17,188 nucleotides of DNA from an uncultured Oscillospiraceae bacterium (GTDB taxonomy: Bacteria > Bacillota_A > Clostridia > Oscillospirales > Oscillospiraceae), in NCBI GenBank assembly GCA_944387745.1, contig CALXGD010000187.1:1-17188 (forward strand), read 5' to 3'. Below the pieces are notes generated by a model that was not told the DNA's origin, searched no databases, and worked only from the letters and a program-made list of their open reading frames with translations. How positions within the stretch are numbered: the first letter of the stretch is position 1; every line of letters starts with the position of its first letter. This document shows, one piece after another, positions 9,562-13,735 of the stretch. A program made the position numbers and the translations under genes.

Positions 9562-10158
9562 GTGTTACGGATGAGACAGGCCAGCTGGGTCAACTTCTTC
9601 CGGTGGCTGCGTGGCCATGGCTTGGACGGGGGCAAGCTGGTGGTTGGCGACAAGTGTCTTGGTATGCTGGAGGCTGTTGGAGCAGTATTCTCCGAGGCCA
9701 AGTACCAGCGCTGTACCGTACACTTTTACCGCAGTGTGTTCTCGGTCACACCTCGCTCCAAAGTGAAGCTGGTGGCTCAGATGCTCAAGGCGATCCACGC
9801 CCAGGAGAACAAGAAGGCTGCCAGGGAAAAGACCAAGGCTGTGGTGGAGGGACTGCGCTCTATGAAGCTGAAGGAGGCCGCCAAGAAGGTGGAGGATGGC
9901 ATTGAGGAAGCGCTGACCTACTGTGATTTCCCCAGTGAACACTGGATTCGCATCCGTACCAATAATGCTATTGAGAGGCTGAACCGGGAGATTTGTCGCC
10001 GTACCTGTGTGGTGGGCAGTTTCCCGGACGGTAATTCTGCCCTGATGTTGGTCTGTGCCCGACTGTGTCATGTGGCTGTTACCCAGTGGAGCAACAAGAA
10101 ATACATAAACATGAAGCACCTGGAGGTGGTCTTTGAGGACGCCTCTATTGCTGGCTGA
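9562..10158 (+). pseudogene. IS256-family (Mutator-type) transposase, C-terminal half
   Basis: The frame encodes the C-terminal half of a transposase of the IS256 group. Homology starts at about 9571 (QASWVNFFRWLRG), then LVVGDKCLGMLEAVG with the second catalytic Asp, the zinc-like CTVHFYR motif, VTPRSKVKLV, and RTNNAIERLNREI with the catalytic Glu. The usual protein is about 400 residues; here the N-terminal half with the first catalytic Asp is missing, so it cannot be active. The GTG at 9562 is only the first start codon in the open frame. Several positions that I remember as Arg in intact copies are Cys here (ICRRTC, RLCHV), which fits C-to-T decay. AATTTGCGAAAAACTGTTGA near 10189-10208 may be the right end of the element. 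Confidence 0.88.
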
Positions 10159-11080: not shown

Positions 11081-11611
11081 ATGAATCACGTCAATGAAAC
11101 CATTGCCACACTCCAGGAGCGGCGCAGTGTCCGCAGTTACCGCAGTGAGCAAATTAAGCCTGAGGAACTTGATGCCATTTTAGATGCGGGCACTTGGGCC
11201 GCCTCTGCCAAGGGGCTACAGTCCGCCGTTATGGTAGTTGTGCAGGACCCGGAAACCATCGCCTACCTCTCAAAGCTCAATGCCGAAATCCTGGGGAAAC
11301 CTGATTCTGATCCATTTTATGGCGCTCCCACGGTGGTTATCGTCTTAGCAGACAGCAATATCAGAACCTGGATTCAGGACGGCTCTCTGGTCATGGGGAA
11401 TCTAATGAATGCCGCCTGGTCCCTGGGAGTGGCCTCCTGCTGGATCAACCGAGCCATGGAGACCTTCGATCGCCCTGAGGGAAAGGCTCTGCTTAAAAAA
11501 TGGGGTCTGCCTGAGACACTGCGCGGAGTGGGTAACTGCATTTTAGGCTATGCCGATGGAGAAATTCCCGCTCCGAAACCCAGAAAAGCTGGTTACATCG
11601 TCCGTGTTTAA
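11081..11611 (+). CDS. Nitroreductase-family FMN oxidoreductase
   Basis: The 176-residue protein is of the short nitroreductase type: NAD(P)H-dependent, FMN-binding, dimeric flavoenzymes that reduce nitroaromatics, quinones or related acceptors. Visible features are the N-terminal FMN phosphate motif ERRSVRSY (residues 13-20), a DAGTWAASAKGLQSA segment, the central strand GAPTVVIVLAD, the LGVASCWINR segment and the C-terminal GNCILGYADGEIP. The natural substrate cannot be told from sequence. ATG 11081 has AAAGGA about 9 nt upstream and its own promoter. It is convergent with the SMR exporter gene; the two share a terminator. Whether they are functionally linked is unknown. Confidence 0.92.
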   Translation: MNHVNETIATLQERRSVRSYRSEQIKPEELDAILDAGTWAASAKGLQSAVMVVVQDPETIAYLSKLNAEILGKPDSDPFYGAPTVVIVLADSNIRTWIQDGSLVMGNLMNAAWSLGVASCWINRAMETFDRPEGKALLKKWGLPETLRGVGNCILGYADGEIPAPKPRKAGYIVRV

Positions 11612-11615
11612 GTGC

Positions 11616-11651
11616 AAAAATACCTCCGTGCTGCGGCACGGAGGTATTTTT
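11616..11651. terminator. Bidirectional terminator between nitroreductase and SMR genes
   Basis: A perfect 16-bp stem (11616-11631 with 11636-11651, loop TGCG) has an A5 start and a T5 end, so both strands show a GC stem with a U-tract. The stop codon of the SMR gene (11652-11650) overlaps its right edge. Confidence 0.92.
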
Positions 11652-11970
11652 ACTCCCCAGAAGTAAGCTTCAACCCCAAAATTCCTGCCAAAAGCAGGGC
11701 TGCAAAAAAAATACGGGCAGCCGTAAGGGGTTCTTTGAACCAAAGGACACCTACAATCAGCGCACCTAAAGCTCCAATTCCCGTCCATACAGCATAGGCC
11801 GTCCCCAGTGGGAGCACCTTCGTAGCCTGGGCCAAGAGGGCAAAGCTGATGATCATCCCTACAACGGTAAGAACTGAAAATTTTAAATTAGTAAAACCAT
11901 CGGAGAGCTTCATACAGGTGGACCAGACCATCTCCATCGCGCCTGCGATACATAAATAGAGCCATGCCAT
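11650..11970 (-). CDS. gdx: SMR-family guanidinium exporter (Gdx/SugE type)
   Basis: The 106-residue, four-span small multidrug resistance protein is of the Gdx subtype, a proton-coupled dual-topology exporter of guanidinium. The central Glu is E13 (IAGAMEMVW). Diagnostic Gdx features are KLSDGFTNLKFS, QATKVLPLGTAYAVWTGIGA and FKEPLTAARI, close to my memory of the characterised clostridial Gdx. The toxic-cation (EmrE/QacE) subtype differs in these places. ATG 11970 is chosen over the upstream start at 12093 because AGGAGG lies about 10 nt upstream and the protein then begins at the family N-terminus. It has a consensus promoter (12180-12207) and a structured leader resembling a guanidine riboswitch, which supports the substrate call. 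Confidence 0.92.
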   Translation of the reverse strand: MAWLYLCIAGAMEMVWSTCMKLSDGFTNLKFSVLTVVGMIISFALLAQATKVLPLGTAYAVWTGIGALGALIVGVLWFKEPLTAARIFFAALLLAGILGLKLTSGE

Positions 11971-12091
11971 AGGAATTGTTCCTCCTAAAAAATAGATTTT
12001 TAAATGACAAATTTTCAATTTCACTGCGTGGGCCAACCCCTGCGGCTTGCTGCTCTTTCGCAAAACAGTACCACACAGAGACGTCAACGCC

Positions 12092-12172
12092 AAAAAAAAG
12101 CACTTACCGATGTATCTTCCAAGGCCTAACGATACATCAATAAATGCACCCCATCTACTCGGCAGCAGATGT
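12092..12172 (-). promoter_or_regulatory. Candidate guanidine-IV (mepA-type) riboswitch with terminator
   Basis: On the minus strand the leader starts with hairpin P1 (12171-12152), an 8-bp stem CATCTGCT/AGTAGATG with loop GCCG. GGGT follows, then a 17-bp hairpin (12147-12139/12108-12100 plus 12138-12131/12116-12109) with a 14-nt loop containing TTAGGCCTTGG. A perfect U8 (12099-12092) comes next. The second hairpin is thus an intrinsic terminator. The two loops can pair (GCC with GGC, or CCGAG with CUUGG), giving the kissing-hairpin design described for guanidine-IV RNAs, in which P2 overlaps the terminator. A Gdx exporter downstream fits. The terminator is certain in structure; the riboswitch class is assigned from memory of its layout. 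Confidence 0.7.
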
Positions 12173-12179
12173 TTTTTTT

Positions 12180-12207
12180 ATTATATCAGATTTGAGCAAA
12201 TTGTCAA
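12180..12207 (-). promoter_or_regulatory. Consensus promoter of gdx leader
   Basis: Minus strand: TTGACA (12207-12202), a 16-nt spacer and TATAAT (12185-12180), with TG one base before the -10. All 12 consensus bases match. Transcription should start near 12173, immediately before the first leader hairpin. Confidence 0.92.
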
Positions 12208-12217
12208 CCCCTGACCC

Positions 12218-12251
12218 AAACCCCGGAGACCGCCGTCGGCGGTCTCCGGGG
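12218..12251 (-). terminator. Terminator of the stalk-domain protein gene
   Basis: A perfect 14-bp GC-rich stem (12221-12234 with 12238-12251, loop GTC) lies 24 nt after the stop codon of the minus-strand gene. Only TTT follows on the minus strand, so the U-tract is short. It insulates the gdx promoter just downstream. Confidence 0.75.
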
Positions 12252-12274
12252 TGCTTCATACCGTCTATCCCCAA

Positions 12275-13735
12275 TCAGAAGGCTGACATAGGGCCTCGCA
12301 CAGACATCGAAGTTTCCTCCATCCCCAACAGGCCCTCCATGAGATCTACTGTCTCAGCGCCGGCAGGAGGTACTGCATCAGGAACGGCCTCGACGCTCCG
12401 ATAGGTGCCGTCCATATGGAAGTTCATTGTTCCGCCAGGGATGTCCATATCAAATGCCATGGTCATTTTCTCATCCCGCATCTCCGTAACCAGGGACACA
12501 CCCTCCGTCTCGTCATCAAGTCGCATCTCCAGGCTATAGCCGGTCACCTCGCCCCGGCTGACAAAAAGATCAAAGCGCATCTGGAGCGCCGCCCCTTCCT
12601 CAAAGAAATCCACGGTGCTGGTGTAGGTAGAACCCTCCTGCACAAAAGCGCTGTCTGCAAAGATCCCATTGCAAATTGTCAAATAATCCTGCGTGGTGAC
12701 CTCTCTGGACAGGGGCAGCATGTTGTCGCTGCGGAGCATGGCCTCCAGTGTCTGGGCGAAGGTCATATCCGGACTCGCCAGACTCAGGGCAACCATTTCA
12801 TCATAGAAGCCGGGTCCGTAGGCCAAATCATAGATCTCCCGCATATCCATGCTGAACCAAGTATCCGCGCCGGAGAGGGCCTGAGATTGGAAATAGAACA
12901 TCCCTGTCTCCACATCATACCGCACATCTATGTCTACATTGGGCAGAACAAACTGCATACCGCTCTCCAGTTCTCCCAAAGTAATGGCCAGGTCAGTGTC
13001 AAACAGCAAAGCTGTTTCATTGGTAATCGTGCTGTACTCCCCGCCCAGGCCGACGGCGGCAGAGGTTTCATCGGAAAAGGACAGGGACAAAGTGCCGTCC
13101 ACCTGCCAATTTCCCTTGTTATACTGTCCGGCATACTCCATGTACTGGTCCATCAGCTCATAGGTCTCCTGGTTAGCCGCCCAGATGGCCTCCACATCGT
13201 CCACCACCACGGCCGCCTCGGCCGTAGACAGAGCCAAGCCACCGGCAGCGTCTGCTGTCCAGCCGTAGTCCACTGCCACACGAAACGTTTCAGGCAGGAG
13301 ATTGTCCAGATCCTCAGCGCTTATGTAGGTGCGCCAAGTTGCTGGGTCCACATAGGGCGGCTTGGACAGCGCAACAGGGCCTCCAGACGAGCCAGTGGTG
13401 GCCGACTTTCCGTCCTCGGATACCTCCGACCAACTGGGGCCGCTCCAAAAGGCGGTCTCATTGCCGATAACTAAGGCGACAGATCTGCCGTCCTTCTCTG
13501 CAGTGATGGTCTGGCTGGATTCATCCCAGGTGATCTGGAACCCCAATGCCTCAAACGTGGCCACCGCCGGGACATCAATGGTATCACCGCGAAACAGCGG
13601 CACAGCATCCGGAAATACTGCCTCCTCCCCGTTTACCAGGAGCGGAATTTCCCCCGGCTCTGCCGCCAGAGACGAAGTGCACATCAGGGTCGCCAGTACA
13701 CCACCGCACAGCATGATTCTTTGCACCTTTTTCAT
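12275..13735 (-). CDS. Secreted protein with copper-amine-oxidase-N-like stalk domain
   Basis: The 486-residue protein begins with a signal peptide (MKKVQRIMLCGGVLATLMCT, cleavage probable after SSLAA at residue 25). Residues about 31-90 match the copper amine oxidase N-terminal (stalk) domain common in Firmicute secreted proteins: PLLVNGEEAVFPDAVPLFRG, DVPAVATFEALGFQITWDES, then QTITAEKDGRSVALVIG. A short segment near 125-145 (PYVDPATWRTYISAEDLDNL) resembles its usual continuation. The rest, about 160-486, is an acidic, beta-rich region with no family I know. It has no cell-wall anchor, no visible catalytic motif and few cysteines. ATG 13735 has GAGGGAG about 7 nt upstream and a promoter at 13853-13881. 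It is divergent from rpoB. I infer an extracellular protein of unknown function. Confidence 0.82.
   Translation of the reverse strand: MKKVQRIMLCGGVLATLMCTSSLAAEPGEIPLLVNGEEAVFPDAVPLFRGDTIDVPAVATFEALGFQITWDESSQTITAEKDGRSVALVIGNETAFWSGPSWSEVSEDGKSATTGSSGGPVALSKPPYVDPATWRTYISAEDLDNLLPETFRVAVDYGWTADAAGGLALSTAEAAVVVDDVEAIWAANQETYELMDQYMEYAGQYNKGNWQVDGTLSLSFSDETSAAVGLGGEYSTITNETALLFDTDLAITLGELESGMQFVLPNVDIDVRYDVETGMFYFQSQALSGADTWFSMDMREIYDLAYGPGFYDEMVALSLASPDMTFAQTLEAMLRSDNMLPLSREVTTQDYLTICNGIFADSAFVQEGSTYTSTVDFFEEGAALQMRFDLFVSRGEVTGYSLEMRLDDETEGVSLVTEMRDEKMTMAFDMDIPGGTMNFHMDGTYRSVEAVPDAVPPAGAETVDLMEGLLGMEETSMSVRGPMSAF

What the first reader, a model, noticed from the sequence alone, without database searches (positions are those of the whole stretch)
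12092..12207. Candidate guanidine-IV riboswitch controlling a Gdx exporter
A perfect-consensus promoter is followed immediately by two hairpins separated by GGGT, the second a 17-bp terminator with U8. Loop sequences GCCGAG and TTAGGCCTTGG can form a loop-loop pairing. The gene downstream is a Gdx-type SMR protein, the family that exports guanidinium. The compact design, with the aptamer's second hairpin doubling as the terminator, matches what I know of the mepA/guanidine-IV class and not guanidine-I, -II or -III. This would make an aptamer, terminator and exporter unit in about 560 bp.
Basis: partly seen in the sequence, partly recalled or inferred. Interest (0 to 1): 0.75.

Follow-up and report, generated by a model that had tools for sequence, protein, structure and literature searches.

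The report
Guanidine-sensing RNA switch before exporter gene
A short RNA in front of a guanidinium-exporter gene, in a bacterium related to gut Clostridia, has the sequence, folding and gene setting of a known switch class, guanidine-IV, that turns such genes on when guanidine is present; it is a clear but ordinary new member.

Summary
On the minus strand lie a 12/12 promoter (12207-12180), an 8-bp hairpin with loop GCCG, a GGGU linker, and a 17-bp terminator hairpin with U8; a Gdx/SugE-type SMR gene (11970-11650) follows. A covariance model built without the window or its nearest relatives scores the element at 70.0 bits, E 6.1e-14. Of 80 homologous gdx loci, 75 carry it. In 50 aligned sequences 94% of pair cells form standard pairs and 22 of 28 pairs change on both sides. 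The loop-loop contact is GCC with GGC; its variable pair is G-C in 56, A-U in 16 and G-U in 4 of 76 distinct sequences. It corresponds to the pair A29-U72, tested by compensatory mutation in the C. botulinum guanidine-IV riboswitch (PMC11611296). Of 26 further model hits, 15 precede SMR, MATE or PnuC genes. The empty Rfam result means little: 20 of 20 motif-bearing relatives also gave no riboswitch match. Guanidine binding was not tested.

The parts
12180..12207 (-). Sigma-70 type promoter TTGACA-16-TATAAT with TG before the -10
   Evidence: 12 of 12 matches; by eye, TTGAC stands at a similar place in 8 of 8 relatives printed
12092..12175 (-). Guanidine-IV-type riboswitch, aptamer plus terminator
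   Evidence: model R1 89.3 bits (window in its training set); model R2, without window and nearest relatives, 70.0 bits, E 6.1e-14
12152..12171 (-). P1 hairpin, 8 bp, loop GCCG at 12163-12160
   Evidence: fold; 6 of 8 pairs with changes on both sides, 91.9% of cells paired in 50 sequences
12161..12163 (-). Loop 1 kissing triplet GCC
   Evidence: pairs with 12126-12124; 100% of cells of the three pairs paired in 50 sequences, variable pair G-C 46 / A-U 4
12148..12151 (-). Linker GGGU between P1 and P2
   Evidence: sequence
12100..12147 (-). P2: 17-bp terminator stem with 14-nt loop; its loop is the second half of the aptamer
   Evidence: fold; 15 of 17 pairs with changes on both sides, 93.9% of cells paired
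12124..12126 (-). Loop 2 kissing triplet GGC (equivalent of positions 70-72 of the C. botulinum RNA)
   Evidence: mapping to PMC11611296
12119..12119 (-). Loop-2 G, equivalent of G72 (L. lactis) / G77 (C. botulinum)
   Evidence: six bases after the second G of the triplet, as; G at this column in 44 of 50 and 25 of 26 sequences
12092..12099 (-). U8 tract of the intrinsic terminator
   Evidence: sequence
11981..11986 (-). Shine-Dalgarno AGGAGG
   Evidence: sequence
11650..11970 (-). gdx/sugE: 106-aa SMR transporter, guanidinium-exporter type (E13, W16, S42, Y59, W62)
   Evidence: Pfam PF00893 109.8 bits; Gdx-Clo chain 6wk5 133.8 bits versus best EmrE chain 49.1 bits; W16 rule

Best explanation
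This is a guanidine-IV (GGAM-1 / mepA-motif) riboswitch that controls transcription termination before a gdx (sugE) guanidinium exporter. RNA polymerase starts at about 12173 and makes P1, then P2. Without guanidine, P2 zips to its full 17 bp and terminates at U8 (12099-12092). With guanidine, loop 1 (GCC) and loop 2 (GGC) kiss; this docked form holds the base of P2 open, the terminator fails, and polymerase reads on into gdx, whose product exports guanidinium. Shown here: promoter sequence, stems, loops, terminator, their covariation, the gene type and the gene setting of the motif. Inferred from published work on the class: guanidine as ligand, the ON direction, the steric mechanism, and transport by this protein.
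For: Architecture and fold. 75 of 80 homologous gdx loci carry the element. Cells paired 94.0% versus 77.6% shuffled and 31-43% slid; 22 of 28 pairs change on both sides, shuffled mean 17.9. Model R2 without window and nearest relatives: 70.0 bits, E 6.1e-14. Variable kissing pair G-C 56, A-U 16, G-U 4, A-C 0 of 76 distinct sequences. Published C. botulinum mutants: G71C, U72C and G77C weaken the kissing loop and A29G/U72C restores it (PMC11611296); the window has the A29G/U72C state naturally. Published L. lactis loop-2 mutants G66C, U67A, G72C abolish the response (PMC7736828). R1 matches in 22 of 398 genomes of the phylum, centre genome included. Of the 28 matches fetched, 2 repeat training loci; for the other 26 the longest same-strand ORF starting within 400 nt is SMR 4, MATE 9, PnuC 2, DUF1989 1, pyridoxamine-oxidase-like 5, radical SAM 2, other 3. 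SMR, MATE and PnuC are published targets. Gdx-type exporter.
Against: No Rfam match. No published guanidine-IV sequence could be fetched; the mapping rests on published residue numbers and spacing. PMC7736828 names U67 among positions of 97% nucleotide identity, yet the equivalent here, and in 56 of 76 sequences, is C; whether the figure's symbol allows C could not be seen. In PMC11611296 the C30G/G71C double mutant did not restore the kissing loop, so pairing alone is not enough. One of 76 sequences (L107) has CA instead of CC in loop 1. A 9-of-12 promoter-like site at 12018-11989 could give riboswitch-independent transcription. The protein scores 108.6 bits, under the NCBIfam SugE equivalog cut-off of 126. 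No binding or transcription was measured.
Confidence: 0.95

Rival explanations
1. It is a Gd4v RNA, the published look-alike of guanidine-IV whose ligand is unknown.
For: Same two-hairpin, kissing-loop, terminator design (PMC9788692).
Against: [quoted passage not shown] Here the gene is gdx and P2 ends in an open 14-nt loop. The exact D1 residue could not be read from text.
Confidence: 0.03
2. It is a plain constitutive terminator or attenuator behind a promoter, without a ligand.
For: A strong hairpin with U8 is present; termination is the default state in any model.
Against: A terminator alone needs no conserved loops, P1 hairpin or loop-loop covariation. 11 columns are invariant in 50 sequences and the variable kissing pair is standard in 76 of 76.
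Confidence: 0.01
3. A real guanidine-IV riboswitch, but bypassed here, since the leader is long and holds a weak second promoter.
For: 144 nt from loop 2 to the start codon against 47 and 42 in the near relatives L001 and L021; 9-of-12 promoter-like site at 12018-11989, shuffle mean 0.6 such sites.
Against: Conserved residues, both stems, U8, Shine-Dalgarno and ORF are intact. Other relatives also have long leaders (115-161 nt in L006, L011, L013, L017). A 9-of-12 site is weak.
Confidence: 0.04

Closest known systems
Guanidine-IV riboswitch (GGAM-1, mepA motif), e.g. L. lactis sugE and the C. botulinum RNA
   Same: Two hairpins, kissing loops, second hairpin is the terminator, mutationally tested loop-2 Gs, SMR target gene
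   Different: Kissing pair 29-72 is G-C instead of the A-U of the C. botulinum RNA; leader longer than in its nearest relatives
Gd4v motif
   Same: Overall two-hairpin kissing-loop terminator design
   Different: Gd4v has an extra hairpin on the terminator in the subset compared, other genes (never sugE), and binds guanidine at best weakly
[quoted passage not shown]
   Same: Also control gdx/sugE genes
   Different: No match of the window to any Rfam family at gathering; in 11900-12400 only four weak unrelated matches up to E 10
Gdx-Clo (PDB 6wk5, 6wk8, 6wk9)
   Same: SMR guanidinium exporter with the central Glu13, W16, S42, W62; 133.8 bits over residues 1-104
   Different: Ordinary sequence divergence

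Membership tests
Guanidine-IV riboswitch | Two hairpins, the 3' one an intrinsic terminator followed by a U run | tested here: met
   covariation
Guanidine-IV riboswitch | Loop-loop pseudoknot between hairpins 1 and 2, supported by covariation | tested here: met
   G-C 56, A-U 16, G-U 4, A-C 0 of 76 distinct sequences; mapping to A29-U72 and C30-G71 of PMC11611296
Guanidine-IV riboswitch | Loop-2 G residues required for binding (L. lactis G66 and G72) | tested here: met
   G12125 and G12119, by published numbering and spacing, not by alignment to the published sequence
Guanidine-IV riboswitch | Loop-2 U67, named as a highly conserved position | tested here: inconclusive
   the equivalent here is C with G in loop 1, the compensated state that restored the kissing loop in PMC11611296; the paper's 97% figure for this position could not be checked against its drawing
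Guanidine-IV riboswitch | Upstream of sugE/gdx, MATE or PnuC genes | tested here: met
   window gene Gdx type; 15 of 26 model hits outside the training loci precede SMR, MATE or PnuC
[quoted passage not shown]
   open 14-nt loop in MFE and centroid
Guanidine-IV riboswitch | D1 residue is G (distinction from Gd4v) | not testable with these tools
   the residue is defined in a figure that is not held
Guanidine-IV riboswitch | Match to a curated covariance model | tested here: inconclusive
   no Rfam hit, but only tRNA hits on 20 motif-bearing loci too, so this Rfam copy seems to lack the class
Guanidine-IV riboswitch | Binds guanidine and raises read-through | not testable with these tools
   bench test needed
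Guanidine-I, -II, -III riboswitches | Match to their Rfam models | tested here: not met
   0 gathering-level hits in the window; none of them among the 4 hits up to E 10 in 11900-12400. That these three classes are in Rfam is recalled
Gdx subtype of SMR | W at position 16 (G or A in the Qac subtype) with E13, S42, W62 | tested here: met
   E13, W16, S42, W62 invariant in the 19 sequences of A1, window included; rule from PMC7695847
Gdx subtype of SMR | NCBIfam SugE equivalog cut-off | tested here: not met
   NF008512 is the best model, 108.6 bits against cut-off 126; the next, Smr, has 70.2

The most novel reading that the evidence does not exclude
The G-C form of the kissing pair (three G-C pairs in all), which dominates among the gdx-linked RNAs seen here, is a naturally tuned subtype that docks with less ligand than the A-U form, so that these bacteria set a lower guanidine threshold.
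Probability: 0.12. Interest if true: 0.4.

Novelty: new member of a known kind. Interest (0 to 1): 0.2.

Why it matters
It adds one more guanidine detoxification unit (promoter, switch, exporter in 558 bp) among relatives of gut Clostridia. The set of 76 sequences shows in nature the same A-U to G-C exchange at the kissing pair that was made in the laboratory. Practically, a scan with this Rfam copy misses the class, so such leaders may go unannotated.

Tried and rejected
Rfam scans of the window and of 11900-12400 at E up to 10 gave nothing relevant; a control on 20 motif-bearing loci gave only 3 tRNAs, so the null was set aside. A viral-contig scan with A1 matched 18 stretches, none confirmed.

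My first regex for the element found 68 of 81; it was replaced by a rule that also scores stem pairing, 76 of 81 with the window. The five misses are L043 (only 28 nt upstream), L045 and L052 (no motif seen), L051 (degenerate first loop) and L074 (motif visible but P1 under the 4-bp rule). My first loop-loop table showed no association (p 0.26) but was wrong: the regex took a P1 stem base for the loop base in many rows and a wrong AGG in at least two. It was replaced by fixed alignment columns, and on recheck one row there (L093) proved to be the same sequence as L080 of A2; the final table, 76 distinct sequences, is. Rows dropped before that count: L087 (same as L060), both L093 rows (same as L080, and a spurious plus-strand row), leaving 26 of 29 rows of A4. 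A2 holds 50 of the 76 motif-bearing sequences; I left out 26, chosen by eye, many near-duplicates. Fisher p values ignore relatedness.

The idea that the longer leader is a repeated mobile element found no support: 0 of 118 loci, 0 viral contigs, 0 of 200 genomes of the family of G002 (which by its own note shows nothing without a positive control). The leader does not fold beyond chance (z -0.45).

Full report
The element. On the minus strand of 12207-12092 there is a promoter with both hexamers perfect (TTGACA, 16 nt, TATAAT, TG before the -10), then P1, a GGGU linker, and P2, a 17-bp stem with a 14-nt loop and U8. The fold has -33 kcal/mol, z -5.76, and none of 200 shuffles reached it. The gene that follows, 11970-11650, has AGGAGG at 11981-11986.

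The gene. It is a 106-aa SMR protein (PF00893, 109.8 bits). SugE is its best NCBIfam model, although below that model's cut-off (108.6 against 126). In the PDB it matches Gdx-Clo at 133.8 bits and EmrE at 49.1. It has W16, which a structural study reports as conserved in Gdx and G or A in the Qac subtype, and E13, S42 and W62 of the binding site.

Relatives. A profile of 19 proteins found 108 confirmed loci in the genome collection, of which 80 were kept. By a rule that asks for loop 1, loop 2 and both stems, 75 of 80 loci plus the window carry the element within 300 nt upstream of the gene. Record titles of these loci name, among others, Pseudoflavonifractor, Mediterraneibacter, Lachnoclostridium, Blautia and uncultured Oscillospiraceae; one is Brachyspira, without the motif.

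Structure test. In 50 aligned sequences the named structure of 28 pairs has 94.0% of cells paired; shuffles average 77.6% and slid versions 31-43%. Changes on both sides occur in 22 of 28 pairs (shuffled mean 17.9, reached by 1 of 500). RNAalifold finds the same two stems by itself. The loop-loop contact is a triplet: two pairs are invariant C-G in these 50, the third is G-C 46 and A-U 4. Adding 26 model hits from other genomes, the third pair is G-C 56, A-U 16, G-U 4, A-C 0 of 76 distinct sequences. One of the 26 (L107) has CA instead of CC in loop 1 and so breaks another pair of the triplet.

Independent score. Model R1 includes the window (89.3 bits). Model R2, built from 26 sequences without the window, without its nearest relatives (L001-L004, L021) and without any sequence of the GCCGAG form, still scores 70.0 bits, E 6.1e-14, at 12175-12095. 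A weak plus-strand hit (11.9 bits) overlaps the same hairpin.

Match to published guanidine-IV. Of PMC7736828 I saw the abstract, the results sections on candidates, binding and termination, the discussion, and passages. Of PMC9788692 I saw the abstract and parts 1 and 2 of 3 of the results. Of PMC11611296 I saw section 6 and passages; of PMC12186494, PMC7695847 and PMC9574504 passages. The class is described there as two hairpins with a pseudoknot, the second hairpin being the terminator; it is an ON switch thought to keep the base of the terminator from forming. In the C. botulinum RNA, G71C, U72C and G77C weaken the kissing loop, A29G/U72C restores it, and C30G/G71C does not. In the window the same positions are G-C and C-G, with a G six bases after the second loop-2 G. 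Distances fit: 37 nt between the paired C and G here (A2 range 28-47), 41 by the published numbers; 33 nt from that G to the end of U8 here, 34 to position 105 there. Not settled: the discovery paper counts U67 among positions of 97% identity, while C dominates here. I could not fetch the published sequences or figures.

Gene neighbourhood of the class. With R1, 22 of 398 genomes of the phylum have a match at E 0.001 or better, and 35 of 200 of the family of G002; both counts include the centre genome, and both searches used stricter filters that lose weak matches. For the 28 phylum matches I took the longest same-strand ORF of 60 aa or more that starts within 400 nt: SMR 6, MATE 9, PnuC 2, pyridoxamine-oxidase-like 5, radical SAM 2, and DUF1989, NUDIX, PPDK and ABC transporter 1 each. 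Two of the SMR cases are training loci. SMR, MATE and PnuC are transporters named in the discovery paper.

Why Rfam is silent. The window has no gathering-level hit, and 20 of 20 motif-bearing loci gave only tRNAs or nothing. This copy seems to lack a guanidine-IV model, so the null is no evidence against the class.

Gd4v. The look-alike Gd4v is reported never to stand with sugE, and in the subset compared always has an extra hairpin on the terminator. Neither fits here.

What remains open. Ligand binding, ON direction and start site are inferred. The leader between U8 and the start codon is 121 nt. From the end of the loop-2 match to the start codon it is 144 nt here, 47 and 42 in the near relatives L001 and L021, and up to 161 elsewhere in the set (L017). 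It holds a weak 9-of-12 promoter-like site. Its origin is unknown.

Verdict. A well supported, ordinary member of a known class.

Noticed in passing
window 11987-12091 (-): About 100 nt more leader between terminator and Shine-Dalgarno than in the near relatives L001 and L021, though other relatives have long leaders too; no copies found and no fold beyond chance.
   Followed up: partly
L119 1142-1925: Two gdx genes in tandem (both 106 aa), with R1 matches 468 nt apart on that contig (G474:C12; ORFs); the C-terminal part of ilvD lies close by.
   Followed up: partly
L090, L097, L100, L101, L115; L098, L102: Five guanidine-IV-type RNAs stand before pyridoxamine 5'-phosphate oxidase-like genes and two before radical SAM genes. 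The four G-U forms of the kissing pair are two of those five (L097, L101) and both of those two.
   Followed up: partly
L110 875-1480: A guanidine-IV-type RNA before a DUF1989 gene, with a nitroreductase-like ORF further on; the window also has a nitroreductase gene (11081-11611) next to gdx, convergent.
   Followed up: partly
window 12220-12252: Perfect 16-bp G+C-rich inverted repeat around one base, between the upstream gene with a Cu-amine-oxidase N-domain (12275-13735, -) and the promoter; it may end that gene's transcript.
   Followed up: no
window 9562-10158 (+): Mutator-family transposase ORF that covers only profile positions 208-369 of 379.
   Followed up: no
Rfam 15 copy: No riboswitch family matched 20 of 20 loci carrying the motif, so guanidine-IV seems absent from this copy.
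   Followed up: partly
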